From contig JABAQQ010000023.1 in NCBI GenBank assembly GCA_019187225.1, positions 124,001 through 188,000 of the forward strand: a stretch of DNA of 64,000 bases, written 5' to 3'. Below the pieces are notes generated by a model that saw only the letters and a program-made list of their open reading frames with translations, had not been told where the DNA came from and did not search any database. Made by a program: the position numbers and the translations under genes. Below are positions 2,926 to 63,753 of this stretch, in pieces (the stretch's first letter is position 1; the number at the start of each line of letters is the position of its first letter). The DNA is from Saprospiraceae bacterium. Lineage in GTDB: Bacteria > Bacteroidota > Bacteroidia > Chitinophagales > Saprospiraceae.

Positions 2926-3001
2926 TTCGCAGAAAAAAACGCGCAGATTTCCGCAGATTGAGCTTAAAATCTGCGGAAATCTGCGCGTTTTTTTCTGCGA
3001 A
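2926..3001. terminator. Perfect 34-bp inverted repeat, likely bidirectional terminator
   Basis: The arms 2926-2959 and 2968-3001 are exact reverse complements with an 8-base loop. Each arm contains the word CGCAGATTTCCGCAGATT and a run of seven A (left) or seven T (right), so a hairpin followed by a U-run could form on either strand. It lies between two convergent genes. The word CGCAGATTT recurs in the array at 63494-63685, so this belongs with the short-word intergenic repeats of the window as well as looking like a terminator. Confidence 0.75.
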
Positions 3002-3055
3002 ATCTGCGGGAAATCCGGAGCGCCCCTATGGGAGTTTAAGAAGGATTATAAAGGC

Positions 3056-5813: not shown

Positions 5814-5836
5814 GGTCATTAAAGGCCATTGGGGTT
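5814..5836. repeat. Single-arm TCATT-word repeat in aceE leader
   Basis: Three tandem near-copies of the word GGTCATTGG/GGTCATTAA/GGCCATTGG. The same word family builds the hairpins at 57834-57927 and 59962-60040. No opposite arm is evident here, so this is either a solo or a decayed copy. Confidence 0.5.
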
Positions 5837-10744: not shown

Positions 10745-12445
10745 ATGCGCTCATTCACCTTCCTTCTTTTGCTTTGTTCTTTTTCAAGGCCGGTTGTCGC
10801 AGACAACCGCGTCTCGCCAACTATTTCCGAAGTCACCGTCTATCGCTCCGGCGCTAAAGTGAGCAGTGTAGCGATGGTAAAAGTAGCCGCCGGTAATTCC
10901 GAAGTGATATTTGAAAATCTGTCACCCTACATCCATGCGAGCAGCATGCTGGTGAAAATCAGGGGAGAAGCTACGTTAATTTCGGCAGTATTCAGCCTGA
11001 AAACGCCGGGCACTGCTCCGGAAAGCCCGCTTGCACCGGTGCTGCGCGACTCGCTCGTATTGCTTGGCGATGAACTCATGCGCCTCCGCGATGAGCGCGA
11101 TGTGTTAAATATGGAACAAAAACTTATCACTGAAAACACGAGCAGGGTTGGCACGGTACCCGAAGGGCAACCGGCCAAGCTCCCTGTTGCGGAGTTGAAA
11201 GCACTTTCGGAGTTTTATCGTCAACGCATTTTGGAAATAAAAGACCGCCTGCTGCAACTTTCAATTAAAGAAAGAAAGGTCAACGAGTTGTACAAAAAAC
11301 TACAGGCCGATTTGCAAAATCTCCAACCCAACGCATCCAACCAAACCGGGGAGATCGCCCTGAAAATCGAGGCGTCCTCCGCCCAAACATTGGAGATCAC
11401 CTGCACTTACCTGGTTACACAGGCAGGCTGGAAACCGATCTACGATTTGCGCTCGGCTGGTTTGGACAAACCGCTTCAATTGGTGTACAAAGCCAACGTC
11501 CACAACCGCTCCGGTTTCGATTGGAAAGGAGTAAAACTGCACCTGTCCACTGCCATTCCGATGGCCAACAACGACCGGCCGATCCTGAATCCAATGTTTG
11601 TGGATTACCGGTACATCGCATTGTACCAAAAGGCGCTCGAACAGCCTGCCACTACTGCAGAAGCTACTCAGATCGAGAGTGGAAATGTGAATATCCGCGG
11701 TTCACGCGGGCAGTCAAGCAACTATTATATAGACGGCATTAGAGAGTCCGGCTCGATGCCGTCGGCGCAAGAGACCGAACAACTACACCGTTTGCTCGAT
11801 GATACGGAGGCAGAATCCGGACAGGAAGATGTTGTAGCCAATTTCGATCTGCCCAAACTACAGGACATCATCGCCAACGGAAAAGATAATGTCATTATCG
11901 TAGAAGAGCGGGATATCCCTGCGGCTTACGAATATCATACCGTGCCAAAACTCGAACCATCCGTATTTCTGCTCGCCAAGATCACCGACTACGGCAAATA
12001 CAACCTCCTTCCCGGCACGGCCAACCTGTTTTTTCAGGATACCTACGTCGGCCAGGCCTGGGTGAATCCGCAGGTTGCTGCCGACACCCTGCTGCTGTCG
12101 CTGGGCCGCGACGAACAGATAGCCATCAAACGAATTCAGCCACAGGACCTTACGGAACGAAAAAAGATATTCGGCTCAACCATAAAAGAGACCTATACCT
12201 ACGAGATCAGCATCAAAAACAACAAATCCGCGCCTATTACAGTGGACGTACTTGACCAAATCCCCATCTCTAAACAAAAAGACATCGAGGTGGAACTGGA
12301 AGACCGGGGCAGCGCACAATACGACGCCGATCCCGGAAAATTGGAATGGCAGGTCCTGGTGCCGGCCGGCCAAACCAAAAAATTGCGGTTTACTTACTCT
12401 GTTAAATATCCCAAAGGGCAAGCGATAGGGATGTTTAAGCAGTAG
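10745..12445 (+). CDS. DUF4139/DUF4140 (mucoidy inhibitor MuiA-like) protein with a TonB-plug-like insert
   Basis: 566 residues with a signal peptide from the ATG at 10745 (MRSFTFLLLLCSFSRPVVA). The N-terminal part (TISEVTVYRSGAKV) matches DUF4140. A coiled-coil segment follows, then the DUF4139 beta-rich region (AGWKPIYDLR, KANVHNRSGFDWKGVKLHLST, and a C-terminal KETYTYEISIKNNKSAPITV). Around residues 314-333 an inserted stretch (NVNIRGSRGQSSNYYIDGI) resembles the plug motif of TonB-dependent receptors. Family knowledge: members are conserved in Bacteroidota and several other phyla with no defined biochemical role. Its final codons AAG CAG TAG form part of the inverted repeat 12437-12635. 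It is divergent from the histidine kinase. Confidence 0.85.
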   Translation: MRSFTFLLLLCSFSRPVVADNRVSPTISEVTVYRSGAKVSSVAMVKVAAGNSEVIFENLSPYIHASSMLVKIRGEATLISAVFSLKTPGTAPESPLAPVLRDSLVLLGDELMRLRDERDVLNMEQKLITENTSRVGTVPEGQPAKLPVAELKALSEFYRQRILEIKDRLLQLSIKERKVNELYKKLQADLQNLQPNASNQTGEIALKIEASSAQTLEITCTYLVTQAGWKPIYDLRSAGLDKPLQLVYKANVHNRSGFDWKGVKLHLSTAIPMANNDRPILNPMFVDYRYIALYQKALEQPATTAEATQIESGNVNIRGSRGQSSNYYIDGIRESGSMPSAQETEQLHRLLDDTEAESGQEDVVANFDLPKLQDIIANGKDNVIIVEERDIPAAYEYHTVPKLEPSVFLLAKITDYGKYNLLPGTANLFFQDTYVGQAWVNPQVAADTLLLSLGRDEQIAIKRIQPQDLTERKKIFGSTIKETYTYEISIKNNKSAPITVDVLDQIPISKQKDIEVELEDRGSAQYDADPGKLEWQVLVPAGQTKKLRFTYSVKYPKGQAIGMFKQ

Positions 12446-12635
12446 GCAATGGGCGATAGGCAGTAGAGAGCAGGGACGGGAGTGTTCAAAAAAGTGTACT
12501 ATTCCCCATTACCCCTGCACTGCATGTCCGACCGCGATACCGCCGAGCCTCGGCTGTGCATACCCAGATGGAACCCCAGTGATATTTTTAGCCCGGTATT
12601 CGGCATTCCTGCCCACTACCCACTGCCTACTGCTT
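12437..12635. repeat. Inverted GCAGTAGGCA-word repeat joining two convergent genes
   Basis: The arms 12437-12453 (AAGCAGTAGGCAATGGG) and 12619-12635 are reverse complements at 16 of 17 positions, and degenerate copies of the word lie inside. The arms contain the stop codons of both flanking genes, so DUF4139 and the YCII gene both end AAG CAG TAG. The central ~150 bases show no gene. Confidence 0.7.
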
Positions 12636-18027: not shown

Positions 18028-18030
18028 CCC

Positions 18031-20869: not shown

Positions 20870-21055
20870 ATATTAATGTGGTCAATGTGGTCAATGGGAT
20901 CAATGGGATTAATGGATTTCAAATGTAATTTTTCCCAAAAATGGCTGGTCATTCCAGGTATTTTTTGAACTTCGCCGGGCAAATGTAAAATTTGATTCAA
21001 CCTTATTGACCACATTGACCACATTGACCACATTAATCATATTGACCACATTATT
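20870..21055. repeat. Nonamer hairpin repeat between divergent genes
   Basis: The left arm (about 20872-20913) is tandem AATGTGGTC and variants (AATGGGATC, AATGGGATT). The right arm (about 21003-21053) is tandem ATTGACCAC, the exact reverse complement, with one divergent unit. The right arm ends two bases before the ATG at 21056, and the left arm begins about ten bases before the tdk GTG. About 90 bases of unique sequence lie between the arms. Confidence 0.8.
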
Positions 21056-24480: not shown

Positions 24481-24512
24481 TTGATTCGTTGATCTGGTGA
24501 TTCGTCGATCTG
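24481..24512. repeat. Two copies of the TTGATTCGTTGATCTG word
   Basis: TTGATTCGTTGATCTG (24481-24496) is followed by a 14/16 copy (24497-24512). The exact reverse complement of the first copy occurs twice in the hairpin at 54473-54586, 30 kb away. It lies in the leader of the esterase gene. Confidence 0.65.
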
Positions 24513-29284: not shown

Positions 29285-29364
29285 AAAGGTACAAGGTTTC
29301 AGGGTTACAAAATTCCGGGGATGCGTTTTTGTAGCCTTGCAATGCTGAAATTCTGTAATCTTTT
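29285..29364. repeat. GGTTTCAGGGTTAC-word inverted repeat
   Basis: The left arm 29285-29316 includes AAGGTTTCAGGGTTAC. The right arm 29331-29364 is an imperfect reverse complement (GTAGCCTTGCAATGCTGAAA and on). The arms fill the gap between the PorP-like and PorE-like genes. Confidence 0.55.
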
Positions 29365-48432: not shown

Positions 48433-48433
48433 G

Positions 48434-48577
48434 GACGGTAGACGGTGGACGGTGGACGGTAGACGGTGGACGGTAGACGGTGGACGGTGGAGGGTTGACA
48501 GTGGAGGATTAAAAAATATGTACCCTCCACCCTCAACCCTCCACCGTCTACCCTCAACCCTCAACCTTCAACCCTAT
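48434..48577. repeat. Heptamer GACGGTG hairpin repeat between crp-like gene and rnz
   Basis: The left arm 48434-48508 is tandem GACGGTG/GACGGTA, grading into GAGGGTT. The right arm 48524-48575 is tandem ACCCTCA/ACCCTCC/ACCGTCT, the reverse complement. The loop is about 15 bases. It starts two bases after the Crp stop, and its right arm runs into rnz, supplying the final codons Lys-Val-Glu-Gly and the TGA. Confidence 0.85.
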
Positions 48578-49529: not shown

Positions 49530-49654
49530 CATTGGATATTGAAAATTGGGCATTGGACATTGAAAATTTTATATTTTAAAAATTTAAATTCAATATTTAA
49601 AAAATATAAAATTTATTAATGTTCAATTTTCAATGCCCAATGTCCAATTTTCAA
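49530..49654. repeat. CATTGGACATTGAAAA-word hairpin between rnz and transporter
   Basis: The left arm 49530-49570 and right arm 49620-49654 are reverse complements with only a few mismatches. Words such as CATTGGGCATTGG/CATTGGACATTG alternate with AAAATT. The words CCAATGTCC and CCAATGCCC also build the array at 61884-62037. The centre (49571-49619) is extremely AT-rich and self-complementary (TATATTTTAAA/TTTAAAAAATATA). Confidence 0.75.
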
Positions 49655-51307: not shown

Positions 51308-51396
51308 AGGTTTTTGTCATTCTGAGAGAACGACAAATGAAGATAGATCTGCTTTTTTGAAGCAATTATTGAAAATCAATTTTTTAGGGTCAATTA

Positions 51397-52644: not shown

Positions 52645-52697
52645 CGTACTTTTGAGTGAGTCCGGGCTGAATATACAGCCATAACGCTGCGGAGGAC

Positions 52698-53234
52698 TTA
52701 TTCCTTGATTTTCGCCAATAAAATCGCATCGATATATTGCCCATCCTTCAACGCAAATTTCCTGCAAACACCCTCGCGCTGGAAACCCGCTTTTTCCAAT
52801 AGCCTCGCCGAAGCAGGATTGTATTCGTACACATGCGCCTCGATGCGCACCAATGGGCTGCTCGAAAACAAGTAGGCGCTCAATTTGCTGACCACCTCTG
52901 TCATAATACCTTGTCCGCGAAACGGCGCTGCGAGCCAGTAACCGATCTCGTCGCGATGTCCCTCTATGCCGCTCAGTACCATTCGGCCTATGCCGCCAAT
53001 CAATCCTGCCTCCCGGTGCCGGATCGCCCAATTGGTCAGGCGACCGTACTTTTCGCGGTTGGCGCGTGTTATCTCCAGCCATTTGTCGGCATCGGATTCC
53101 GAGTATGGACTTGGTATGGTGAGTGTGTTGCGGTAGACCACCGGATCGTTCAGATAAAGCACCAAATTTGATTTGTCTTCCCGTCGAAATTCGGTTAGTG
53201 TGACCAAGTCGTTGATGACGATTTTTCCTTCCAT
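52698..53234 (-). CDS. GNAT-family N-acetyltransferase (RimJ/RimL type)
   Basis: 178 residues from the ATG at 53234. The acetyl-CoA site is GYWLAAPFRGQGIMTEVVSKL, and the Rim-type end is EYNPASARLLEKAGFQREGVCRKFALKDG. It would acetylate an N-terminal residue of a protein or a small amine; the substrate is unknown. Confidence 0.9.
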   Translation of the reverse strand: MEGKIVINDLVTLTEFRREDKSNLVLYLNDPVVYRNTLTIPSPYSESDADKWLEITRANREKYGRLTNWAIRHREAGLIGGIGRMVLSGIEGHRDEIGYWLAAPFRGQGIMTEVVSKLSAYLFSSSPLVRIEAHVYEYNPASARLLEKAGFQREGVCRKFALKDGQYIDAILLAKIKE

Positions 53235-53299
53235 TTCCGAATATATTTTTGTTTTCAAAAAAGCCAACTCCCATTTTCAAAACAAAGTTCCAACCAACA

Positions 53300-53332
53300 A
53301 ACCTCAAATCAGAAACCCTGTAACCATGTAAT
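53300..53332. repeat. GAAACCCTGTAACC word upstream of GNAT gene
   Basis: GAAACCCTGTAACC (53312-53325) is the reverse complement of GGTTACAGGGTTTC, close to the words at 21759-21816 and 29285-29364. No convincing second arm. Confidence 0.4.
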
Positions 53333-53333
53333 G

Positions 53334-54401: not shown

Positions 54402-54472
54402 ACAAAAGAAAGAGTGAATTTTGTCCGAACCAGAACGTCTTGCAAAAATCATTAAATCTTTGATGAACCCAT

Positions 54473-54586
54473 GATTGGTTTATTCGGTGATTTGTTTATT
54501 TGGTGATTTGAGTATTCACTACGCCAACCAATCACCGGATAAGCAGATCAACGAATCAACCAATAAACAGATCAACGAATCAACGA
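54473..54586. repeat. CAGATCAACGAATCAA hairpin repeat between asparaginase and proC
   Basis: The left arm 54473-54510 (GATTGGTTTATTCGG-type words) faces the right arm 54525-54586 (two exact CAGATCAACGAATCAA copies at 54544-54559 and 54569-54584). The right arm ends four bases before the proC ATG. The same 16-mer occurs, inverted, at 24481-24496. Confidence 0.8.
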
Positions 54587-54590
54587 AAGA

Positions 54591-55391
54591 ATGAAAATAC
54601 TGATCCTGGGAGGTGGCAACATGGGTATGACCTACGCGCAAAGTTTTCTCCGCAGCCGCATCGTTACCCCCGACAACCTGATGATCCTTTGCCGTACGTA
54701 CGAAAAAGCCAACCAGCTAAGTCAAACGCACGAAGGCCGTTTTTTCAGCGACCCGCGTCATTGCGTACCCGAAGCCGATCTGCATATCCTTGCCGTCAAA
54801 CCGCAGGACTCAGGCAAATTGTTCGGGGAAATCAGCGAATTGGTGCAGCCCGGCCAGGTTTTTCTGAGCATCATGGCAGGAGTGCGGATGGCAACGATCG
54901 CGCAAGCGCTTGGCGCCGAAAAGATCATCCGCGCCATGCCCAACCTGCCCGCACAGATCGGAGCGGGCGTCACGGCTTTTACCTCCACCGACCAGGTGAC
55001 GCGCATCGAACTGGTGATGGTGCAAAACCTGCTGAGTACGACCGGAAAGACGATCTATGTGGAACGCGAAGAGATGATTGATGCTTCCACCGCCATTTCA
55101 GGTTCCGGACCGGCCTACGTTTATTTTTTCATGAATGCGATGATGGAGGCCGCCAAACAAATGGGCTTTTCAGCTTCGGAGGCCGAACTGCTTGCCAGTC
55201 AGACATTTACCGGCGCTGTGGATCTGTACAACAAAGCTGACCTGAGTTGCGAGAACTGGATTGCCAAGGTGGCTTCCAAAGGCGGCACAACGGAGGCCGC
55301 CCTGGGAGTCTGGCGCGAAAAATCTTTGCATGAAGACATTATTGCAGGAGCGAATGCAGCCCTGGAACGCGCCCGGGCATTGGGGCGCTGA
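54591..55391 (+). CDS. proC: Pyrroline-5-carboxylate reductase
   Basis: 266 residues, the usual size. It reduces pyrroline-5-carboxylate to proline with NAD(P)H. The Rossmann start is KILILGGGNMGMTYAQSFL; the substrate and fold markers are AVKPQDSGKL, RAMPNLPAQIGAGVTA and the ProC signature SGSGPAYVYFFMNAMMEAAKQMGFS with GGTTEAALGVWR. Start ATG 54591 lies flush with a short-word repeat. Confidence 0.96.
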   Translation: MKILILGGGNMGMTYAQSFLRSRIVTPDNLMILCRTYEKANQLSQTHEGRFFSDPRHCVPEADLHILAVKPQDSGKLFGEISELVQPGQVFLSIMAGVRMATIAQALGAEKIIRAMPNLPAQIGAGVTAFTSTDQVTRIELVMVQNLLSTTGKTIYVEREEMIDASTAISGSGPAYVYFFMNAMMEAAKQMGFSASEAELLASQTFTGAVDLYNKADLSCENWIAKVASKGGTTEAALGVWREKSLHEDIIAGANAALERARALGR

Positions 55392-55505
55392 ATCGCAAAT
55401 GGCACGTCAGGCGAACAATAAAATTTTTTCTTTTTGAAAAAATGCGCCGACTCCTTACTTTCGGGTCGAACTAAAACCGTTTCACACATAAATTTTTTAT
55501 CGCCT

Positions 55506-55934
55506 ATGATGAACGAACCCATACACGCGCACATGACGACTCAGATCGTCACACTCAAACCCGACAGCACCCTTGGTGAAGCTCGGGAGATCATGTTAAG
55601 CAAACGCATTCACCACCTGCCGGTGCTCGAAGGAAAGCGATTGGTCGGCATGATCACTTCCTGGGATATTTTCAAACTCGGAAAATCGGCAGAGGATTAC
55701 CAGGATATAAAGGCACGGGAAGTAATGACCACAAAAGTCGCTACCCTCGATCCTGACCAACACTTGGGCGCCGTCGCCGATGTGCTGACCCGTCACCTGT
55801 TCCATGCTGTTCCGATCGTCAATGACAAGAAAGAACTGCTTGGCATCGTGACCTCTACCGACATCATCCGCTACGGCCATACCAAGGAGTATCCGGAAAA
55901 TCTGGAAAAATTCATTCCGGAAAACATGGTTTGA
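55506..55934 (+). CDS. CBS-domain pair protein
   Basis: 142 residues from the ATG at 55506. Two CBS modules: MTTQIVTLKPDSTLGEAREIMLSKRIHHLPVLEGKRLVGMIT and VMTTKVATLDPDQHLGAVADVLTRHLFHAVPIVNDKKELLGIVTS. CBS pairs bind adenosyl nucleotides and regulate partner proteins. There is no attached effector domain, so it is a stand-alone nucleotide-sensing module. Confidence 0.92.
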   Translation: MMNEPIHAHMTTQIVTLKPDSTLGEAREIMLSKRIHHLPVLEGKRLVGMITSWDIFKLGKSAEDYQDIKAREVMTTKVATLDPDQHLGAVADVLTRHLFHAVPIVNDKKELLGIVTSTDIIRYGHTKEYPENLEKFIPENMV

Positions 55935-55938
55935 GGAA

Positions 55939-56130
55939 GGATATTGGGATATTGGGATATTGGGATATTGAGATATTGGGATATTGGGATATTGAGATGT
56001 TGGGAAATTGAGATGTTGGACGGGGATAATATCTCAATATCCCAATATCTCAATATCTCAATATCTCAATTTCCCAATATCCCAATATCTCAATATCTCA
56101 ATATCCCAATATCCCAATTTCTCAATTTCC
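55939..56130. repeat. Octamer GATATTGG hairpin repeat
   Basis: The left arm (55939-56019) holds about ten tandem copies of GATATTGG/GATATTGA/GATGTTGG. The right arm (56029-56130) is about thirteen copies of ATCCCAAT/ATCTCAAT/TTCCCAAT, the reverse complement. An ~11-base loop lies between. It begins four bases after the CBS stop codon. Any ORFs inside (many Ile-Ser-Gln or Ile-Pro repeats) are products of the 8-base period. Confidence 0.9.
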
Positions 56131-56190
56131 TTTTCTGTGAACAGGCCGGCCTTTGTGCTGTTGTTGCGGAAAAACAAACACAACACAGAC

Positions 56191-56661
56191 ATGGCCGTTC
56201 ACACTCTGAGACGCGTACAGCGCCTGCCTATTACGCTGGAAAAAGCCTGGGACTTCTTTTCTTCTCCTTTGAATCTCAAAGAGATAACGCCCCCCTATAT
56301 GGGCTTTAACGTGAGATCGGACCCTGCATTTTTGCAAAAAATGTATGCCGGTCAGATCATCACCTACACGGTGAAACCCCTCTTCGGTATTCCGCTATTC
56401 TGGATGACGGAAATAACGCACGTGGAACCCGGACAATTTTTCGTAGACGAACAACGCGTGGGGCCATACGCGATCTGGCACCATCAGCACCACTTTAAGT
56501 CCATTCCCGGAGGAGTAGAAATGACCGACCTTGTGCATTACAAGATGCCACTCGGGTGGCTCGGCGATATTGCCAATTGGCTTTTCGTGCGCCGCCAGTT
56601 GAACGGCATATTCGATTACCGCCGGAAAAAATTAGAGTCCCTTTTTGGCAAAATGCCTTAA
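56191..56661 (+). CDS. SRPBCC (START-like) family protein
   Basis: 156 residues from the ATG at 56191. Helix-grip pattern: LRRVQRLPITLEKAWDFFSSPLNLKEITPPYMGF, YTVKPLFGIPLFWMTEITHV, FFVDEQRVGPYAIWHHQHHFKSIPGGVEMTDLVHYKMP. It is similar to ligand-binding cyclase/aromatase-type proteins of Bacteroidota, which bind a hydrophobic ligand. The frame is open upstream through the repeat, but that part is the 8-base repeat product. Its stop codon overlaps that of the FKBP gene on the opposite strand (56658-56661). Confidence 0.87.
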   Translation: MAVHTLRRVQRLPITLEKAWDFFSSPLNLKEITPPYMGFNVRSDPAFLQKMYAGQIITYTVKPLFGIPLFWMTEITHVEPGQFFVDEQRVGPYAIWHHQHHFKSIPGGVEMTDLVHYKMPLGWLGDIANWLFVRRQLNGIFDYRRKKLESLFGKMP

Positions 56662-57113
56662 AAATCAATCAGTTCAATCTCGAAGATCAGCACAGTATTC
56701 GGTGGAATGGAGCCACTGCCATAAGGCCCGTAACCAATAGCAGATGGCAGTAGGAAAGTGCCTTTGCCTCCCTTTTTCAACAAAGGTATCCCAATCTGCC
56801 ATCCTTCGATCAGGTTGGAGAGTGGGAAGGTAGCGGTTTCGTTGCCGGTCGTCTCGTCGAATACCGTGCCGTCGGTCAAATAACCTTTGTATTTCACTGT
56901 TACGGTAGACTGCTGGTTTGGGTGTCCGCCGGACCCTTCCTGAGTGATGATGTAATGCAGTCCGGCAGTGGTGGAATCTGCCGTGAGATTGTTGTCGGCG
57001 AGGTATTGTTGGATGATCCGGATGTCCTCCTCAAATTGCTCCTCCGGGCTGAGGACTTTATCGCTGCAGGAAAAAAGAACGAAACAAAGAAAAAAAAGTG
57101 TCAGATAACGCAT
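56658..57113 (-). CDS. FKBP-type peptidyl-prolyl isomerase lipoprotein
   Basis: 151 residues from the ATG at 57113 (MRYLTLFFLC...). Lipoprotein signal ending LFSC. A short helical spacer (EEQFEEDIRIIQQYLADNNL) precedes the FKBP domain: VTVKYKGYLTDGTVFDETTG, LIEGWQIGIPLLKKGGKGTFLLPSAIGYG and IPPNTVLIFEIELI. It catalyses cis-trans proline isomerisation in envelope proteins. The stop codons of this and the SRPBCC gene overlap on opposite strands. Confidence 0.94.
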   Translation of the reverse strand: MRYLTLFFLCFVLFSCSDKVLSPEEQFEEDIRIIQQYLADNNLTADSTTAGLHYIITQEGSGGHPNQQSTVTVKYKGYLTDGTVFDETTGNETATFPLSNLIEGWQIGIPLLKKGGKGTFLLPSAIGYGPYGSGSIPPNTVLIFEIELIDF

Positions 57114-57188
57114 GTGTTTCAAATTTTGGGCGGCGAAGGTAAGGCACGTAACGACTATTGCAAGCAGACACCAACGTATATTGACCCA

Positions 57189-57830
57189 TCATTCGCTTTT
57201 AGCCGCCCAGGAACATATCGGACATTTCTCCTGCTGATGCCCCCGCGCAGGACAGTACTGCCGACCGAAATAGATGATCTGCAGGTGGAGTTTGTTCCAG
57301 GTATTTTCCGGAAAAATGGCTTTGAGGTCGCGTTCCGTTTGCTCCACACTTTTTCCGGAGCTCAGCCCCCAACGGGCCGCCAAACGGTGAATATGCGTAT
57401 CTACGGGGAATGCGGGATGGCCGAAAGCCTGCGACATCACCACTGAAGCCGTTTTGTGTCCTACACCCGGCAACTTTTCCAGATCTTCAAAACTCTCGGG
57501 CACCCGGCCACCGTGTTTTTCTGCGATGATCCTGGAGAGCTCACTGATGGCTTTCGACTTGGAAGGCGACAACCCGCAGGGTTTGATGATCTCCCGTATC
57601 TCCTCGACGGGAAGTTGGGCCATATCGGCCGGGGTGTCGGCGCGGGCGAACAGGATCGGAGTGATCCGGTTCACGCGCTCGTCGGTACATTGAGCCGAAA
57701 GCACCACCGCCACCAGCAGTGTGAAGGCGTCCTCGTGGCGCAGCGGAATGGGCGTTTCGGGGTATAGTTCGTCGAGAATACGCTGGATTTTCGCTGCCTT
57801 TGCCTGCATGGCGGGAGGGACTTTTGTCAT
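57189..57830 (-). CDS. nth: Endonuclease III
   Basis: 213 residues; DNA glycosylase/AP-lyase for oxidised pyrimidines. The helix-hairpin-helix with catalytic Lys is LPGVGHKTASVVMSQAFG, and the catalytic Asp is in FPVDTHIHRLAARWGLS. The expected Fe-S region reads CPARGHQQEKCPICSWAAKSE at the end: only three cysteines, spaced C-x9-C-x2-C, with no fourth Cys, whereas E. coli Nth has C-x6-C-x2-C-x5-C. The start codon at 57830 directly follows the repeat arm. Confidence 0.92.
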   Translation of the reverse strand: MTKVPPAMQAKAAKIQRILDELYPETPIPLRHEDAFTLLVAVVLSAQCTDERVNRITPILFARADTPADMAQLPVEEIREIIKPCGLSPSKSKAISELSRIIAEKHGGRVPESFEDLEKLPGVGHKTASVVMSQAFGHPAFPVDTHIHRLAARWGLSSGKSVEQTERDLKAIFPENTWNKLHLQIIYFGRQYCPARGHQQEKCPICSWAAKSE

Positions 57831-57833
57831 AAA

Positions 57834-57927
57834 GGGTCATTAGGAGTCATTAAGCGTCATTCCCGCCGCATTCCGGGCGCGTCTACGGAAATCACGAAAA
57901 TCATGACTCCTAATGACTCCTAATGAC
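57834..57927. repeat. GTCATTAGGA-word hairpin upstream of nth
   Basis: The left arm 57834-57862 (GGTCATTAGGAGTCATTAAGCG) and right arm 57901-57927 (TCATGACTCCTAATGACTCC) are reverse complements around a GC-rich centre. The left arm ends three bases upstream of the nth ATG. TCATT words are shared with 5814-5836 and 59962-60040. Confidence 0.75.
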
Positions 57928-57931
57928 GATT

Positions 57932-58387
57932 TTAAATTTTTTCGAAGACAATTTCGTTGGTAGTGACGATGCCATTCTGGTTCACCTCGTATTCGACCGT
58001 CAGTTTTGAATCGGTCAATTCAACGATTTCAGCGTCGAAGCTCAGATCGCCGGATGTCACGACGAGATGCGTTTCATTTTGAGTGAGTTCCCAGGTACCC
58101 GTTTCTTGTTGGGGATCGATGGGATTGCACTTCGTAGCGCCTTCGTCGAGGACGAGTGTTCCGTCGGTATTGAATTCGGCAAAATCGTCTTTGTCGCAGG
58201 CGGGTGATTGGGCATAAACGTCTACCGTTTGGTCAACGCCATTGAAAGTGAATTTGGCCACCCAGGATGTTATTTTCCATTGGCCGTTGGTGAGTTTGTC
58301 TGTGTTGCTGGCATCGCTGTCTTTGTCGCAGGCGCCGAGGAAAAGTGCAAGACCGAGGCCAAGCAGATAAAAAACCGGTTTTTTCAT
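57932..58387 (-). CDS. Lipocalin-like lipoprotein
   Basis: 151 residues. Lipobox LGLALFLGAC at the end of the signal peptide. The mature domain has the lipocalin-like pattern of Bacteroidota: TNGQWKITSWVAKFTFNG, FAEFNTDGTLVLDEG, TGTWELTQNETHLVV and a final NEIVFEKI strand. Paired cysteines lie around residues 65-90. It is probably an outer-membrane- or periplasm-anchored binding protein; ligand unknown. Confidence 0.82.
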   Translation of the reverse strand: MKKPVFYLLGLGLALFLGACDKDSDASNTDKLTNGQWKITSWVAKFTFNGVDQTVDVYAQSPACDKDDFAEFNTDGTLVLDEGATKCNPIDPQQETGTWELTQNETHLVVTSGDLSFDAEIVELTDSKLTVEYEVNQNGIVTTNEIVFEKI

Positions 58388-58426
58388 AGTAACGCAGTGT
58401 TTGGTAAATGAATGTCGGATTGGATT

Positions 58427-59944
58427 TTAATGCCGGAAATGCCGGAATCCCGTCATAACCATCGCCATGCCGTATTTATTGCAGGCATCAATGGAGTCCT
58501 GATCCTTGACGGAGCCTCCCGGTTGGATGACGGCCGTAATACCCGCCTCGTGCGCGATCTCGACACAATCGGGGAAGGGGAAGAAGGCATCGGAGGCCAT
58601 GACGGCGCCCTCGAGGTCGAAACCAAAGGATCTGGCTTTGGCAATCGCTTGTTTGAGGGCATCCACGCGGCTGGGTTGTCCGCAACCCATACCGATGAGT
58701 TGGCGCTCTTTCACCAGTGCGATGGCGTTGGATTTCAGGTGTTTCACACACTTCACGGCAAAGATCAGTTCGCCGGCCTCTTTGGGAGTGGGGGCGCGTC
58801 CCGTGACGGTCCGGAGATCGGCTTCGGTTTCAGTCTTGAGGTCAGCATCTTGTTCCACTACGCCGTTGAGTAAGCTGCGGAAAGTGCGTTTGGGCAACTC
58901 GAAACTTTTGATCCTTAACAAGATACGCTGGTCCTTCTTTTTCAGCAATTCCAATGCTTCGGGGTCGAAATCCGGTGCGATGAGCACCTCGTAAAAAAGT
59001 TTGTTGATCTCCTGCGCCGTTGGGATGTCTACTTTCGCATTGGTGATAAAAATACCGCCGAAGGCAGAAACGGGGTCACAGGCAAGTGCGGCCTGCCAGG
59101 CTTCGAGCAGGGTGTGTCTCCGGGCTACACCGCAGGCGTTGGTGTGTTTCAATATGGCGAAGGCGGGTTTGCCCACCTGAAATTCGCGCATCAGTTGCAC
59201 GGCAGCGTCTATGTCCACCAGGTTGTTGTAAGAAATGGCTTTGCCACCCAATTTGTCGAACACTTTTTCAAAATCGCCGAAAAACACGCCGCTTTGATGG
59301 GGATTTTCGCCGTAGCGAAGAATATCGGAGCGGTGGATGCTGTATTTGAAAGAAATATCCGTCGTGCCTTCGTTGAACCAGTTGAAAATGGCGATGTCGT
59401 AATTGGATGTGACTTTAAAGGCGCGGCGGGCAAATTCGCGGCGGTTGTAGGCGGAGAATTCGCCGTTTTGTTCGTCGAGCAGGTCAAGGAACATCTTGTA
59501 TTCCTCTTTGGAGCCCACCACCACTACGTCCTTCCAGTTTTTGGCCGCAGCCCGGATGAGCGAAACGCCGCCGATGTCAATTTTTTCGATGATCTCTGCC
59601 GGATCATTCGACGTAGCGACCGTCTCCTCGAAAGGGTACAAGTCCACGATCACGCAGTCAATTTCCGGGATATTGTATTCGCTTAATTGAGCCAGATGCG
59701 CCGGTTCGCGGCGGGCAAGTATGCCGCCGAAAACAGCCGGGTGCAGCGTTTTGACCCGTCCGTCGAGGATACTGGGATAACCGGTAAGCGACTCCACCGC
59801 CGTGACGGGAAAGCCCAGTTTCTGGATATAGGATTGGGTGCCGCCGGTGCTGTACAGTTGAACGCCCAATTCGTGCAGGCGGCGGATAATGGGTTCGAGG
59901 CCGTCTTTGGAGTAGACGGAGATAAGGGCTGATCGGATTTGCAT
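58427..59944 (-). CDS. purH: Bifunctional AICAR transformylase / IMP cyclohydrolase
   Basis: 505 residues, catalysing the last two steps of IMP synthesis. The N-terminal IMP cyclohydrolase (MGS-like) begins MQIRSALISVYSKDG and has GGTQSYIQKLG and DGRVKTLHPAVFGGIL. The C-terminal AICAR transformylase has ILKHTNACGVARR, SAFGGI, CVKHLKSNAIALVKE and ASDAFFPFPD. The start at 59944 is chosen because an upstream in-frame ATG (59968) is part of the leader repeat 59962-60040. A TACCTTTG -7 box (minus strand, 60067-60060) would put that hairpin in the leader. Confidence 0.97.
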   Translation of the reverse strand: MQIRSALISVYSKDGLEPIIRRLHELGVQLYSTGGTQSYIQKLGFPVTAVESLTGYPSILDGRVKTLHPAVFGGILARREPAHLAQLSEYNIPEIDCVIVDLYPFEETVATSNDPAEIIEKIDIGGVSLIRAAAKNWKDVVVVGSKEEYKMFLDLLDEQNGEFSAYNRREFARRAFKVTSNYDIAIFNWFNEGTTDISFKYSIHRSDILRYGENPHQSGVFFGDFEKVFDKLGGKAISYNNLVDIDAAVQLMREFQVGKPAFAILKHTNACGVARRHTLLEAWQAALACDPVSAFGGIFITNAKVDIPTAQEINKLFYEVLIAPDFDPEALELLKKKDQRILLRIKSFELPKRTFRSLLNGVVEQDADLKTETEADLRTVTGRAPTPKEAGELIFAVKCVKHLKSNAIALVKERQLIGMGCGQPSRVDALKQAIAKARSFGFDLEGAVMASDAFFPFPDCVEIAHEAGITAVIQPGGSVKDQDSIDACNKYGMAMVMTGFRHFRH

Positions 59945-59961
59945 ATGCGAGGGTAAATAAA

Positions 59962-60040
59962 GGGTCATTAAAAGTCATTTAAGAGTCATTATTTCTGAAA
60001 ATCAATCTCTTAAAATGACTTTAATGACTCAAATGACCTT
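59962..60040. repeat. TCATTTAAGAGTCATT hairpin repeat upstream of purH
   Basis: The left arm 59962-59991 (GGTCATTAAAAGTCATTTAAG) and right arm 60010-60040 (CTTAAAATGACTTTAATGAC) are near-perfect reverse complements. The word is shared with 57834-57927. The arm overlaps an in-frame ATG before the purH start. Confidence 0.75.
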
Positions 60041-60059
60041 TATAATTTTTTAGAAGGCG

Positions 60060-60067
60060 CAAAGGTA
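60060..60067 (-). promoter_or_regulatory. Possible -7 element of purH
   Basis: TACCTTTG on the minus strand matches TAnnTTTG. No -33 TTTG lies at 17-21 bases. It is included because it predicts that the hairpin 59962-60040 is transcribed as the purH leader. Confidence 0.35.
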
Positions 60068-60164
60068 GCGCGATGCCGCGAAAAAAACGGGGAAGGTTTG
60101 TGCTTTTCCGCTGCGACTTGCATCTATCCATGCAAACAACCGTTCACCCAAACCTTTTTCTGTT

Positions 60165-61877
60165 ATGAAAATCCATATCTTCTTCGTTTGCCTTGCGCTC
60201 TTTATTTCCTCCGCCTGCGACCGTCATTACAGCCTTCCCGCCGAATCACAAAGTGTCACCGCGGCTCCGCTGCCGTCCGGCAGGGCGCTAAAAGATGCAA
60301 TGATTGCAAACAAACCGATGCCCCATCAACCATCTGTCCGGTTTGTCCCGCCAGTGGTAAAAGCCGATGAAATGGTCGCGGAGGAAAAAATGAAAAAAAA
60401 TGAAGCCGACGACCTGATCAGAGAAGGAGAAGAAGCGGAACAATACAATCCCATCGTGGAAAACCCTTTTCAGGATAGCCGCCTGGCCAATATTTCTACT
60501 TTTTCGATTGATGTAGATGCGGCTTCCTATGCCAATGTTCGGCGTTTTATCAACGATGGGATGTTGCCGCCTCCCGATGCCGTACGCATCGAAGAGATGA
60601 TCAATTATTTTGATTATCAATACAATGTACCGCAAGCGCAACATCCATTCGAAGTATATACCGAAGTATCGCCCTGCCCTTGGGAACCGAAGCACCGGTT
60701 GCTGCTCATCGGTCTGCAAGGCAAAACGATGGATAACGGCCAACTGCCCGCCTCCAACCTCGTTTTTCTTGTGGATGTCTCGGGCAGTATGGATGAACCC
60801 GACAAGTTGCCCTTAGTGCAGCAATCGCTCGCCCTGCTCACCGATCAACTCCGCCCTAACGACCGCGTGGCCATCGTTGTGTATGCCGGCGCAGCAGGGC
60901 TGGTACTCCAAAGCACTCCCGGCGCCGACAAGTTGAAAATAAAAGCCGCCATCGGTGAGTTGCAGGCAGGCGGCAGCACGGCAGGTGGCGAAGGCATCCG
61001 CCTGGCTTACGAAACAGCCCGCAAACACTTTATTTCCAATGGCAACAACCGCGTCGTGCTGTGCACCGACGGCGATTTCAACGTGGGCGTGAGCAGCGAG
61101 CAGGAATTGGTCAAACTTATTGAAAAAGAACGCGAGAGCGGCATCTATCTGACGGTGCTCGGCTTCGGCACGGGTAATTACCAGGACGGTAAAATGCAAA
61201 GCCTGGCCGATAAAGGCAACGGTAATCACGGCTATATAGACCAATTGAGCGAGGCGAAAAAAATGTTCGTGCGCGAATTCGGCGGCACGCTCTTTACTAT
61301 CGCCAAAGACGTAAAACTGCAACTGCATTTCAACCCACAACAGGTGGCGGGATACCGGCTCATCGGTTATGAAAACCGCCTGCTGGCTACCGAAGATTTT
61401 CACGACGATACCAAAGATGCAGGTGAAATGGGCGCCGGGCACCGCGTGACGGCACTCTACGAACTTATCCCGACAGGCCAGCCGCTCCCCCCGCTGTCCA
61501 CACTCGATTCGGCGCTCGTTGTCGTCATCGAGCCGGACAAATCGGTAAAGATCAAGCCGGACGACCTTTTTGTCGTGCAACTGCGCTACAAACAACCCTC
61601 GGGTACAGCGCCCAGTCAACTGCTCGAATATCGCCTGAACGCTTTGGCCCTCGATCGCCGCGATGAAAGCGATAATTTCAAAATAGCATCTGCTGTGGCG
61701 GAATTCGGTTTGCTGCTCCGCGATTCCAAATTCAAGGGCAATGCTTCGTGGGCCCACGCGCTTGCCCGGGCCAGGGAAGCGGCCAAAAACGATGCCGGGG
61801 GATACAGGGCCGAGTTGGCTGCATTGGTGGAAAAAGCTGGAAAACTCGCCGGGAAAGTGACAGCAGGCAGGAAATAA
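60165..61877 (+). CDS. von Willebrand factor A lipoprotein (YfbK-like, DUF3520)
   Basis: 570 residues. A lipoprotein signal (IFFVCLALFISSAC) gives a lipidated Cys near residue 18. A Pro/Ala/Lys-rich segment follows, then the YfbK-type N-terminal domain (ISTFSIDVDAASYANVRRFI). The vWA domain has an intact MIDAS (FLVDVSGSMDEPDKL, then GGSTAGGEGIRLAYETA and CTDGDFNVG). The C-terminal DUF3520 region (VQLRYKQPSGTAPSQLLEYRLNALALDRRDES, FGLLLRDSKFKG) is complete. MIDAS domains bind protein ligands through a metal ion; the partner is unknown. The start ATG at 60165 follows a short Pro-rich leader frame that is not used. Confidence 0.9.
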   Translation: MKIHIFFVCLALFISSACDRHYSLPAESQSVTAAPLPSGRALKDAMIANKPMPHQPSVRFVPPVVKADEMVAEEKMKKNEADDLIREGEEAEQYNPIVENPFQDSRLANISTFSIDVDAASYANVRRFINDGMLPPPDAVRIEEMINYFDYQYNVPQAQHPFEVYTEVSPCPWEPKHRLLLIGLQGKTMDNGQLPASNLVFLVDVSGSMDEPDKLPLVQQSLALLTDQLRPNDRVAIVVYAGAAGLVLQSTPGADKLKIKAAIGELQAGGSTAGGEGIRLAYETARKHFISNGNNRVVLCTDGDFNVGVSSEQELVKLIEKERESGIYLTVLGFGTGNYQDGKMQSLADKGNGNHGYIDQLSEAKKMFVREFGGTLFTIAKDVKLQLHFNPQQVAGYRLIGYENRLLATEDFHDDTKDAGEMGAGHRVTALYELIPTGQPLPPLSTLDSALVVVIEPDKSVKIKPDDLFVVQLRYKQPSGTAPSQLLEYRLNALALDRRDESDNFKIASAVAEFGLLLRDSKFKGNASWAHALARAREAAKNDAGGYRAELAALVEKAGKLAGKVTAGRK

Positions 61878-61883
61878 GCCTCG

Positions 61884-62037
61884 GGACGTTGGACGTTGGA
61901 CATTGGACTGTTGTCTAATGTCTAATGTCCAATGTCCAATGTCCAATGTCCAATGTCCAATGTCTAATGTCCAATGTCCAATGTCTAATGTCCAATGTCC
62001 AATGCCCAATGTCCAATGTCCAATGCCCAATGTCCGA
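61884..62037. repeat. Heptamer TCCAATG array with inverted head
   Basis: About 18 tandem copies of TCCAATG/TCTAATG/CCCAATG run from 61914 to 62033. The first ~28 bases hold GACGTTG/GACATTG, the reverse-complement version, so a hairpin can form with part of the array. It separates convergent genes (vWA and rmuC), beginning seven bases after the vWA stop. The words are shared with 49530-49654. The ORF here with repeated Ser-Asn-Val-Gln-Cys-Pro-Met units is an artefact of the 7-base period. Confidence 0.9.
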
Positions 62038-62084
62038 TTATTTTGCCCGCATACTTGGGATGGTTTGTTTCAGCACAAGAGCGC

Positions 62085-63398
62085 CTAAGTATTCACTCCA
62101 TCTTCCTCCAGCAATAAATCCCGTGGCAATGACTTGGTCGCACGCGCACCCAGTTCTCTGATCTTTTCGGCTTTCCCAATGAGCGTATCACCGGGACGTG
62201 CAGCATTGGTGAGTTTGTTCATGGCGTCGTCATAGGCGGTCCGGGCATTGTCGAGCCGGGCGCCGATGGTCTTTAAATCTTCCACGAAGGCAACGAATTT
62301 GTCGTAGAGCAAACCGCTTTGGCGGGCGATCTCGAGCACCGAACGGGCTTGTTTTTCCTGCTTCCACAGGTGGGCGACGGTGCGCATGGTGGCGAGCAGG
62401 CTACTGGTGGTCACCAGTACGATGTTGCGCTCCAGAGCATCGGTGAAGAGTTTGGGATCGGCTTGAGAGGCGACCGTTAGGGCGCTTTCGAGCGGAACGA
62501 ACAACAGCAGGTAGTCCGGCGTGTTGATCTGGTAAAGCATCTGGTAGTTGGTGCGGCTCAGGTTGTCCACATGACTGCGCAGGCTGTTGACGTGGGCTTT
62601 CAGGTGCTGATCGCGTTCGGCAGGATCGTCGGTATTGAAATACCGCTCGAAGGCCGTGAGCGATACTTTCGCATCCACGATCAGGTGTTTGTTTTCAGGT
62701 AATTGGATGATAAAGTCCGGGCGTTTGGCGGCCCCTTCGTCGTCGCGGAAAGTGGTTTGGGTAAGGAAGTGAATACCCTTTTGCAGGCCTGATTTTTCGA
62801 GCAATGTTTCGAGTTGAAGTTCGCCCCAATCGCCTTGTACCTTGCTCTGGCCTTTGAGCGCGGTGGCGAGGTTGTGCGCGTCGTGGCTGAGTTGCTGGTT
62901 GAGGGTGTGCAATTGTTCGATCTCTTTCTTCAGGCTCGTTTTTTCGCGGGTCTCTTCTAAGAATTTCCGATCCACGTTTTCTTCGAATTCCTTTATTTTT
63001 TCTTTCAGGGGACTTAGTACCTGCTGCAATTGCCGGGCATTTTGCGCAGTGAAACGCTCCGATTTTTCCTCCAGCAACCGGTTGGCGATGTTCTCGAATT
63101 CGGTTTTAAACCGCGCCTGCAACTGCTCCACTTCGCTTTTTTGGGTTTGCAGGGTGTTTTCTAAGTGATAGATCTGCTGTTCGCGGGCAGCGAGTTGCGC
63201 AAGCGCGTCGCGGAGTTCCTGTTCTTTGGCGCTGAGCCCGGCGCGCAGTTGCTCGTTTTGAGCAACAATGGCGGCGTGAAGTTCTTTGGGCACGAACTGA
63301 TCAGACGACAAGCCTGCAACGGGCGCGCGACGTTGCACCACGATAAAAAAGAGTATCAGCGCCAGGCCGCCGAGGATGAGATAGAAGTTGGTGTCCAT
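62085..63398 (-). CDS. rmuC: DNA recombination protein RmuC
   Basis: 437 residues. N-terminal transmembrane helix (FYLILGGLALILFFIVVQ), a long coiled coil (~45-190; EKEQELRDALAQLAAREQQI and on), then the RmuC PD-(D/E)xK-like nuclease domain: KVQGDWGELQLETLLEKSGLQ, FRDDEGAAKRPDFIIQLPENKHLIVDAKVSLTAFERYF, where PDF and VDAKV supply the catalytic Asp, Asp and Lys. Loss of rmuC in E. coli raises inversion between short inverted repeats, which is notable given the repeat content of this window. Confidence 0.95.
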   Translation of the reverse strand: MDTNFYLILGGLALILFFIVVQRRAPVAGLSSDQFVPKELHAAIVAQNEQLRAGLSAKEQELRDALAQLAAREQQIYHLENTLQTQKSEVEQLQARFKTEFENIANRLLEEKSERFTAQNARQLQQVLSPLKEKIKEFEENVDRKFLEETREKTSLKKEIEQLHTLNQQLSHDAHNLATALKGQSKVQGDWGELQLETLLEKSGLQKGIHFLTQTTFRDDEGAAKRPDFIIQLPENKHLIVDAKVSLTAFERYFNTDDPAERDQHLKAHVNSLRSHVDNLSRTNYQMLYQINTPDYLLLFVPLESALTVASQADPKLFTDALERNIVLVTTSSLLATMRTVAHLWKQEKQARSVLEIARQSGLLYDKFVAFVEDLKTIGARLDNARTAYDDAMNKLTNAARPGDTLIGKAEKIRELGARATKSLPRDLLLEEDGVNT

Positions 63399-63753
63399 GT
63401 TCCGGGCGTTTTGCAGGCAAATGTAGGATGGATTTTACTTTTTGTTTATTTTGGGGCGCTTTTAAAAATAAATGTTTTGAAATTAACATTTTCGCCCGCA
63501 GATTCGCGCGAACTGTTTCCCGCAGATTTCGCAAATTATTTCCCCGCAGATTTGCACAGATGTTTCCCGCAGATTTCGCAAATTATTTCCCCGCAGATTT
63601 GCGCAGATGTTTCCCGCAGATTTCGCGAACTGTTTCCCGCAGATTTGCGCAGATGTATCCCGCAGATTTGCGCAGATTTTTCCCCCATTACTTCGATGAG
63701 TAACGGGAAATATCGTCAAAATTCATTTAATTCACTATTAAAACACGCTTGCC
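63399..63753. other. 355-base gap containing a CGCAGATTT array
   Basis: No gene that I can support. The first ~90 bases are AT-rich; the remainder is mainly the array described separately. The ORF with Arg-Arg-Phe-Ala-type repeats is a product of the word period. Confidence 0.6.
63494..63685. repeat. Direct CGCAGATTTGCGCAGAT / CGCAGATTTCGC array
   Basis: About nine tandem copies of CCCGCAGATTTGCGCAG or CCCGCAGATTTCGCAAATT, in one orientation, spaced 18-30 bases with T-rich links. The same CGCAGATTT word makes both arms of the hairpin at 2926-3001. Unlike the other arrays, no long opposite arm is visible. It lies 70 bases before the GxxExxY gene. Confidence 0.8.

What the first reader, a model, noticed from the sequence alone, without database searches (positions are those of the whole stretch)
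2926..63685. Genome-wide family of short-word intergenic hairpins
At least 14 intergenic gaps hold runs of a 7-16 base word, usually with the reverse complement as a second arm: 2926-3001, 5814-5836, 12437-12635, 20870-21055, 21759-21820, 24481-24512, 29285-29364, 48434-48577, 49530-49654, 53300-53332, 54473-54586, 55939-56130, 57834-57927, 59962-60040, 61884-62037, 63494-63685. The word period differs (7, 8, 9, 16) and the words differ, yet several loci share a word. They occur in convergent, divergent and co-directional gaps, and touch start or stop codons within a few bases. This does not fit ordinary terminators, CRISPR or REP elements, which have one consensus.
Basis: partly seen in the sequence, partly recalled or inferred. 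Interest (0 to 1): 0.8.

Follow-up and report, generated by a model that had tools for sequence, protein, structure and literature searches.

The report
Word-armed mobile hairpins between bacterial genes
The repeats between genes look like small mobile hairpin units: some copies carry a gene for one of two little-understood proteins inside the hairpin, others do not, and the repeated word tends to go with the protein, which may give a source for repeats that have had no known origin.

Summary
The explanation lies outside the window. In this genome 10 of 11 genes of the 23S_rRNA_IVP four-helix-bundle family (PF05635) and 5 of 5 GxxExxY genes (PF13366) sit between such arms; five of eight window hairpins tested share their words. 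The array at 63494 is the left arm of a GxxExxY unit that runs off the window. The architecture recurs in the fetched DNA of this genome and relatives (IVP 68/89, GxxExxY 24/36; reversed controls 9/89, 1/36) and in named genomes of many phyla (53/78; control 4/78). Word and protein vary together (Mantel r 0.46), also at unrelated sites (33/88 pairs; background 2.3%). IVP arms mostly have period 7-8, GxxExxY arms mostly 9-11. I read these as small mobile foldback-like elements related to rRNA intervening sequences, with gene-less derivatives. Not shown: transposition, word binding, a clean empty site with target duplication. A heptamer consensus failed on held-out words. No paper that I saw links these proteins to such repeats.

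The parts
2926..3001 (.). gene-less hairpin, word CGCAGATTT (the word of the GxxExxY unit at 63494), loop 8 nt
   Evidence: (word match 0.72 to GXX_L042)
5814..5836 (.). short run GGTCATTGGGGTCATT, no second arm; borderline by shuffles
   Evidence: hairpin not above chance, tandem run reached by 2 of 200 shuffles
12437..12635 (.). gene-less hairpin, GGCAGTAG/GGCAATGGG words, loop about 145 nt
   Evidence: (0.54 to IVP_L006)
20870..21055 (.). gene-less hairpin, AATGTGGTC word, loop about 100 nt; no matching unit word found in this genome
21759..21820 (.). short hairpin, GTTTCAAGG/GTTTCAGGG word (an IVP in relative G020 has GTTTGAAGG arms)
24481..24512 (.). single-arm array TGATTCGTTGATCTGG, no hairpin
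29285..29364 (.). hairpin, GGTTTCAGGGTTACA-type word; its word run alone is reached by 7 of 200 shuffles
48434..48577 (.). gene-less hairpin, GGACGGT word (7 nt)
   Evidence: (0.82 to IVP_L002)
49530..49654 (.). hairpin with GGACATTG/AAAATTGGGCATTG words and AT-rich core; no own-genome unit above 0.4
54473..54586 (.). gene-less hairpin, TGATTTGTTTATTCGG word
   Evidence: (0.42 to IVP_L008); by eye the same gap in most relatives lacks such arrays
55939..56130 (.). gene-less hairpin, GGATATTG word (8 nt), -136 kcal/mol
   Evidence: (0.89 to IVP_L009)
57834..57927 (.). gene-less hairpin, GTCATTAGGA word (an IVP of relative G021 has GGTCATTT arms); no own-genome unit matches
59962..60040 (.). gene-less hairpin, GTCATTAAAG word; hairpin reached by 1 of 200 shuffles, word run by 9
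61884..62037 (.). hairpin with short GGACGTT left arm and long TGTCCAA right array (17.7 copies)
   Evidence: (0.45 to IVP_L005)
63494..63685 (.). left arm of a GxxExxY unit, word CCCGCAGATTTGCGCAGAT; the right arm lies beyond the window (L048:205-433)
   Evidence: arm score 114
63754..64000 (+). 5' part of the GxxExxY gene (PF13366/TIGR04256) in the loop, cut by the window end

Best explanation
The arrays are the arms of small mobile foldback-like units. A complete unit is: a run of a short word (mostly 7-11 nt; for the IVP type the G-rich, C-poor strand comes first), then a gene of about 115-155 codons, then the same word as reverse complement. The gene is either a 23S_rRNA_IVP-type four-helix-bundle protein or a GxxExxY protein of the PD-(D/E)XK nuclease superfamily. 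Many copies, in the window all but one, have no gene and are hairpins with a short loop, which I take to be non-autonomous copies. Proposed mechanism: the protein made by a complete copy recognises its own word; several words in a row give multivalent binding (two solved IVP relatives have five chains in the entry). In RNA the arms fold into a long hairpin that can be cut out of a transcript, as in the rRNA intervening sequences, which would make insertion next to stop codons tolerable. The protein then helps the unit and its gene-less copies to spread, and the arms grow and shrink by slippage. Shown by comparison: arms, gene in the loop, word-protein covariation, dispersed gene-less copies, presence/absence and copy-number change. 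Inferred: binding, excision, the spreading reaction.
For: Own genome: 10 of 11 IVP and 5 of 5 GxxExxY genes between inverted arms, scores 27-114, reversed control 8-22; other own genes of 60-250 codons 3 of 124 at 20 or more, after taking out 5 that are IVPs themselves. All fetched DNA of this genome and relatives: 68 of 89 IVP, 24 of 36 GxxExxY at 20 or more; reversed control 9 of 89 and 1 of 36; other genes of relatives 12 of 164, of which three are IVP places and two IS1 copies. Named genomes: 53 of 78, control 4 of 78. Cyanobacterial plasmids: 12 of 15 at 20 or more (15 of 29 records fetched), but in two of the 12 the control scores about as high. Word and protein similarity: Mantel r 0.46 for IVP (n=59) and for GxxExxY (n=20), p 0.0005 each. 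Homologous units at non-homologous sites share words in 33 of 88 pairs, against 2.3% of 1534 dissimilar IVP pairs (pairs are not independent). Arm periods differ by cargo: IVP 84 of 115 arms at 7-8, GxxExxY 30 of 37 at 9-11; per element 40 of 55 against 2 of 10 at 7-8, Fisher p 0.0026; 22 of 25 cyanobacterial arms at 7. 5' arm has G>C in 57 of 60 IVP units. Gene-less hairpins match the words of their own genome's units (mean 0.43; null 0.22, maximum 0.31 of 5000; sample partly chosen by word). Eleven dispersed copies share a loop, reversed control 0. G007/G009 differences.
Against: No clean empty site with target-site duplication for a word-armed unit: at three of the four present/absent sites that I compared between G007 and G009 the whole gap content differs, and at the fourth a short hairpin remains whose age is unknown. 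21 of 89 IVP and 12 of 36 GxxExxY genes have no arms at the cut-off; in named genomes 25 of 78 have none, and by eye some of the 53 that pass (for example L305, L324, L327, L346, L354) are not word runs. Covariation of word and protein shows that they travel together; it does not by itself show recognition. The heptamer consensus (G-W-N4-R) failed on held-out words (p 0.35 and 0.12). Periods of GxxExxY arms are often weak. The strand bias is weaker for GxxExxY (15 of 21). Three of eight window hairpins match no unit of this genome, and in G009 (7 hairpins) and G007 (4) the own-genome word match is hardly better than chance (0.24 against 0.14, 0.17 against 0.15). Arms often extend to the next gene's start codon, which fits replacement of the gap as well as insertion.
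Confidence: 0.62

Rival explanations
1. Passive growth: hairpins between genes expand by replication slippage and template switching, and IVP or GxxExxY genes are passengers that happen to sit in such safe hairpins. The proteins do not read the words.
For: Arm copy number differs between two genomes 94.7% identical. In the window all hairpins but one have no gene. No recognition was tested.
Against: The period depends on the cargo and is mostly 7 for IVP in distant phyla with unrelated words; the G-rich strand comes first in 57 of 60 IVP units; the same word often follows similar proteins to unrelated sites (33 of 88 pairs).
Confidence: 0.2
2. The hairpins serve the host: bidirectional transcription ends or RNA-stabilising stems at gene borders, as proposed for REP elements.
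For: Several sit within a few bases of stop codons; 4 of 10 window hairpins are in convergent gaps against 6 of 39 gaps overall; they fold very stably. 6 T in 8 bases follow the + strand arm in 4 of 12 hairpins and the - strand arm in 2 of 12.
Against: None of 16 terminator-like matches in 47500-64000 falls in a listed hairpin (that scan allows loops of 3-8 nt only, so it would miss long-loop hairpins). They occur in divergent gaps too. By eye, syntenic gaps in most relatives lack them. This does not account for the genes in the loops.
Confidence: 0.1
3. Non-autonomous copies of an ordinary transposon (MITE or REP moved by a transposase elsewhere), with word arms as their ends; IVP and GxxExxY are extra cargo.
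For: A GGACATT subfamily has 11 dispersed copies with a conserved loop, several with TAAGTA...TACTTA ends. MITE-like elements with terminal repeats occur in the same region of G007 and G009.
Against: The three Y1 transposase genes of the genome are not between word arms; two of them have other palindromes. I searched no other transposase family, so this is not excluded. One transposase would not explain many words that go with IVP similarity.
Confidence: 0.08

Closest known systems
23S rRNA intervening sequences (IVS) with the S23p/23S_rRNA_IVP gene (Coxiella IVS: PMC4990558, passages seen; rRNA insertions of CPR bacteria: PMC11270868, passages seen)
   Same: Same protein family in the loop of a long hairpin made by terminal inverted repeats; a mobile origin has been proposed there.
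   Different: Not in rRNA genes here (0 Rfam matches in 16 own loci); arms are runs of a short word; gene-less copies between protein genes; a second, unrelated protein (GxxExxY) has the same architecture.
Orphan heptamer repeats: GGGGA(T/C)T in Nostoc and GGGAATC in Xanthomonas (PMC4692102, passages seen), TAACTGA in Beggiatoaceae, Cyanobacteria and five Bacteroidetes (PMC4679880, abstract and section 10 seen), STRR of Calothrix and Nostoc (words recalled, no call)
   Same: Period 7, mostly intergenic, strain-specific, indels in steps of 7 nt reported; TCAGTTA, the complement of TAACTGA, forms the left arm at the IVP gene of Vibrio salinus.
   Different: Those papers describe the repeats alone; in the parts seen no protein or loop gene is linked to them, and only some are paired as inverted repeats. 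I could not test whether they flank IVP genes in those genomes.
Foldback (FB) elements of Drosophila (recalled, no call)
   Same: Inverted arms built of short tandem repeats, variable arm length, many copies without a coding core.
   Different: Eukaryotic, much longer, unrelated proteins.
REP/REPIN with RAYT transposases (defining features recalled)
   Same: Dispersed intergenic palindromes.
   Different: One palindrome per family and a Y1 transposase; the genome has three Y1 genes, none between word arms.
BrickBuilt MITE of Porphyromonas gingivalis (PMC4596501, abstract and outline seen)
   Same: Intergenic Bacteroidota element with a minisatellite and small inverted ends.
   Different: One 23-nt direct repeat with short inverted ends, single species, no IVP or GxxExxY named in the abstract.

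Membership tests
23S rRNA intervening sequence (IVS) | encodes a 23S_rRNA_IVP four-helix-bundle protein | tested here: met
   11 genes in the genome over the Pfam cut-off, TIGR02436 for L002; not met by the gene-less hairpins of the window
23S rRNA intervening sequence (IVS) | long complementary ends around the gene | tested here: met
   10 of 11 own, 68 of 89 in all fetched DNA
23S rRNA intervening sequence (IVS) | lies inside an rRNA gene | tested here: not met
   0 Rfam matches at gathering score in 16 own loci; the window has one tRNA and one group I intron only. Loci of relatives and named genomes were not tested
23S rRNA intervening sequence (IVS) | cut out of the transcript by RNase III | not testable with these tools
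   needs RNA data
REP/REPIN-RAYT | palindromes flank and depend on a Y1 transposase gene | tested here: not met
   three Y1_Tnp genes; two are flanked by other palindromes, one by nothing above chance
REP/REPIN-RAYT | one conserved palindromic consensus per family | tested here: not met
   words and periods differ between loci
CRISPR array | identical repeats separated by unique spacers | tested here: not met
   head-to-tail words without spacers, in two inverted arms
Intrinsic terminator | G+C-rich stem followed by a T run | tested here: inconclusive
   0 of 16 terminator-like matches in 47500-64000 lie in a listed hairpin, but the scan allows loops of 3-8 nt only; 6 of 8 T after the + arm in 4 of 12 hairpins, after the - arm in 2 of 12
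MITE / insertion sequence | fixed terminal inverted repeats | tested here: inconclusive
   arms differ in word and length; one GGACATT subfamily shows TAAGTA...TACTTA ends in several of 11 copies
MITE / insertion sequence | target-site duplication at an empty/filled pair | tested here: inconclusive
   short overlaps seen for some other insertions of the region, none for a word-armed unit
PD-(D/E)XK nuclease superfamily (GxxExxY) | conserved D...ExK | tested here: met
   D67, E77, K79 invariant in 10 of 10 aligned sequences; activity not tested

The most novel reading that the evidence does not exclude
IVP and GxxExxY are the founder proteins of two previously unrecognised classes of bacterial mobile element. 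Each oligomeric protein reads a tandem word (one word per subunit or so, about 7 nt for IVP and 9-10 nt for GxxExxY, as TRAP reads its triplets; TRAP is recalled). The element's arms are its binding sites, and the gene-less hairpins spread in trans. rRNA intervening sequences are the copies that landed in rRNA, and the long-known orphan heptamer repeats of cyanobacteria, Xanthomonas, Beggiatoa and Bacteroidota are their arms and remains.
Probability: 0.3. Interest if true: 0.92.

Novelty: new variant of a known kind. Interest (0 to 1): 0.8.

Why it matters
If right, two widespread protein families of unknown function get a role and a target sequence that can be tested in vitro at once. Heptamer repeats that have been described without an origin (the earliest that I recall, STRR, from 1990) get a source. 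rRNA intervening sequences, for which a mobile origin was proposed in 1990 and 1993 (cited in PMC4990558), become one case of a much larger family of elements. The word-protein pairs collected here (59 IVP and 20 GxxExxY units) give a ready set of predicted specificities.

Tried and rejected
Heptamer consensus: a rotational alignment of 55 IVP words gave G-W-N4-R with information 3.45 bits against a maximum of 3.29 in 30 column shuffles, but 14 held-out cyanobacterial words (p 0.35) and five published heptamers (p 0.12) did not fit better than shuffled letters; I keep the period and strand bias and drop the consensus. Exact word across the phylum: GGACATT three times in a row occurs in only 2 of 247 genomes, one being this one, so single words are not widely shared. 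Clean insertion sites: sought in 200 kb of G009 against G007 and at further IVP sites; presence/absence found, no clean target duplication; the third site search found no orthologous place. In one search the repeat measure counted both arms together and was inflated; I replaced it by a one-arm measure and do not use the 'tandem' counts. The repeat measure has the same fault, so the 40 'word-armed' named units (36 of them G>C) are a loose set. In some searches I read minus-strand loci as plus strand; corrected. IVP in phage records: one query (L067), no match. GxxExxY in viral contigs: 5 loci, arm scores 36, 29, 29, 17 and 12; by eye only L267 has word arms. Structure prediction and fold search were not run. 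Cas-locus reading: IVP genes do occur inside cas operons (PMC3936711, passages seen); I did not look for cas genes in the window.

Sampling to bear in mind: the 20 own-genome stretches were chosen mostly around IVP genes and GGACATT hits, so hairpin counts outside the window are no unbiased census. The relatives' IVP genes are the best match of each genome plus places that I picked from the list; many listed places were not fetched. Of the 12 'other genes' with a score of 20 or more, two were not looked at.
Full report
What is there. Tandem Repeats Finder and RNA folding show word runs with reverse-complement second arms in most of the listed gaps. Tested one by one against 200 dinucleotide shuffles, 11 of the 16 listed stretches have a hairpin stronger than every shuffle and a twelfth than 199 of 200; 5814, 24481 and 53300 have no second arm, and 63494 has its second arm outside the window. 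Of 39 gaps of 30 nt or more, 10 hold a hairpin above all of 20 shuffles; none of 36 mid-gene windows reaches the score that 9 of 39 gaps reach. The window is G000:C2:124001-188000 of a 7.18 Mb genome in 73 contigs. The best named IVP locus is from an uncultured Saprospiraceae bacterium, 67% identical, so I take the host to be a Saprospiraceae relative (inference).

The lead. The word GGACATT is spread over the genome (86 + 81 matches of an 18-mer with one mismatch, 0 for the reversed control). I asked for two small protein families that I recalled next to such repeats. The genome has 11 genes of 23S_rRNA_IVP (PF05635) and 5 of GxxExxY (PF13366). Reading the flanks showed the word runs on one side and their complement on the other. 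With orientation corrected, the local alignment of the upstream flank with the reverse complement of the downstream flank scores 27 to 108 in 10 of 11 IVP genes and 40 to 114 in 5 of 5 GxxExxY genes; the reversed control scores 8 to 22. The failing IVP (L011) is a partial match near a contig end. The array at 63494-63685 is the left arm of the GxxExxY unit L042.

Controls and breadth. Among 129 own genes of 60-250 codons, 8 score 20 or more, and 5 of these are IVPs by their coordinates, which leaves 3 of 124. In all DNA held by then from the genome and its relatives, 94 IVP and 37 GxxExxY genes were found, 89 and 36 with enough flank. Arms at 20 or more: 68 of 89 and 24 of 36; reversed control 9 and 1. 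Other genes of similar size in the relatives' stretches: 12 of 164. Of those 12, three are IVP places that the filter had missed (two by family, one by coordinates), two are copies of one IS1-like transposase with its ends, five have other inverted repeats or separate hairpins on both sides, and two were not looked at. A pattern scan of the GTDB collection with an IVP alignment gave 80 named loci (the best 80 of 579 confirmed). 53 of 78 with flanks have arms at 20 or more (25 of 42 Bacteroidota, 28 of 36 others, among them Geobacter, Vibrio salinus, Clostridia, Chloroflexi, an Acidobacterium, a Nitrospirae bacterium, Verrucomicrobia and one Peregrinibacterium), control 4 of 78; by eye a few of the 53 are not word runs. 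Of 29 plasmid records with an IVP match I fetched 15, all cyanobacterial: 12 reach 20, though in two of these (L379, L380) the control scores about as high.

Word and cargo. Comparing arm words (5-mer profiles) with protein identity gives Mantel r 0.46 for 59 IVP units and for 20 GxxExxY units, p 0.0005 each in 2000 permutations. The test that bears on mobility: among 88 pairs of units with 55% or more protein identity and no detectable homology in their flanks, 33 share words (cosine above 0.3), 55 do not; among 1534 IVP pairs under 40% identity 2.3% do. For example L002 of this genome and L075 of G022 are 68% identical, both with GGACGGT arms, at unrelated places; L184 (G022) and L210 (G035, another family) are 58% identical with word similarity 0.91. 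So arms and gene tend to travel together.

Period and strand. Best period of the arms: IVP 7 in 57 and 8 in 27 of 115 arms; GxxExxY 9-11 in 30 of 37, often weakly; in named genomes 7 in 44 of 68 IVP arms. Per unit with clear periodicity the difference between cargos has Fisher p 0.0026 (40 of 55 against 2 of 10 at period 7-8). 22 of 25 cyanobacterial arms have period 7. The G-rich strand comes first in 57 of 60 IVP units, 15 of 21 GxxExxY units and 36 of 40 loosely defined word-armed named units, and in 9 of 10 window hairpins, the exception being the GxxExxY-type 2926. Solved IVP relatives 2gsc and 2rld each have five chains; the title of the 2gsc paper, seen in a reference list, speaks of five four-helix bundles. 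One subunit per word is inference. A tighter consensus for the heptamer did not survive held-out words.

Gene-less copies. Fifty-three gene-less word hairpins more than 3 kb from any gene-bearing unit match the words of this genome's own units better than words of equal-sized sets from other genomes (mean best 0.43 against 0.22, maximum of 5000 draws 0.31; 26 against 5.0 above 0.4). Because the stretches were partly chosen by word, the window is the fairer sample: of its 8 hairpins in that test, five match an own unit above 0.4 (2913 GxxExxY L042, 12437 L006, 48437 L002, 54459 L008, 55940 L009), three do not. In G009 and G007 (7 and 4 hairpins) the own-genome advantage is small. Eleven GGACATT hairpins in 464 kb share the loop GACCAAATGATTGGTT (up to 2 mismatches), several with outer ends TAAGTA...TACTTA, at different places, so gene-less hairpins also occur as dispersed copies.

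Change over short times. G007 and G009 are 94.7% identical over 156 kb. A unit of G007 with GGTTGTT arms and an IVP gene is absent from the syntenic gap of G009; a G009 unit with GGTTTGAAGG arms stands where G007 has a short hairpin with similar inner sequence; one gap holds hairpins of different words in the two. An orthologous GGTCATT unit has many more words per arm in G009 than in G007. At two more sites the unit is present in one and the gap is filled differently in the other. In 25 relatives of the same genus I read by eye the gap upstream of the proC homologue, and the CBS gap where the neighbours were found: most have no array and a few have other words. I did not find a clean filled/empty pair with a target duplication.

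How it may work, and what it is not. The best account is a mobile foldback-like unit whose protein reads its arms. Rivals are passive slippage, a host function at gene ends, and movement by an unlinked transposase; the membership table gives the tests. The units are IVS-like by protein and hairpin but fail the defining rRNA location in the 16 own loci tested, so I do not file them as IVS.

Literature. 'GxxExxY' occurs in 2 papers of the library; in the one whose passage I saw it is a neighbour of a reverse transcriptase, with no link to repeats; the other I saw in the listing only. Searches for IVP, S23 or four-helix-bundle terms with repeat terms, of which I saw the listed top papers, found IVS papers, one with 18 IVP genes in cas loci (PMC3936711, passages), and repeat papers, none that joins the two in what I saw. 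PMC4692102 (passages) states that no detailed literature on heptameric repeats was available in 2015. Subscription papers and preprints are mostly not held, so this is not proof of novelty.

Noticed in passing
window 18830-18902 and 18997-19206: A tRNA gene followed 94 nt later by a group I intron match (Rfam RF00028, 69.1 bits).
   Followed up: no
L379, L387, L393: IVP genes inside CRISPR operons of cyanobacterial plasmids (cas6-IVP-cas4 twice, cas10-IVP-cmr3 once), each beside short repeat runs.
   Followed up: partly
L156-L175 (G009, G007): MITE-like elements with ends GTAAAAACTTAGGCAGG and TACCCAGATTAAAGAGG, polymorphic between the two genomes, some with short overlaps that look like target duplications; one carries an ACAGGATTTACAAGATTT word hairpin inside.
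   Followed up: partly
L160, L373, L375: A different hairpin beginning TTTGTCATYC occupies the gap in the genome that lacks the IVP unit, in three compared sites.
   Followed up: no
L370, L372: Y1 transposase genes flanked by their own palindromes, CCCCACCG-type and GGCGCGAGTCTCCGACTCGTGCC-type.
   Followed up: no
L176 (G009:C1): By eye, a transposase-like insertion of about 1.3 kb lies inside the right word array of an IVP unit; not tested.
   Followed up: no
G191: The reversed control of the GGACATT search hits 7 + 13 times there, i.e. a TTACAGG heptamer array of the same kind.
   Followed up: no
L267 (IMG/VR contig): A GxxExxY gene on a viral contig between arms with GGAATAAAC words.
   Followed up: no
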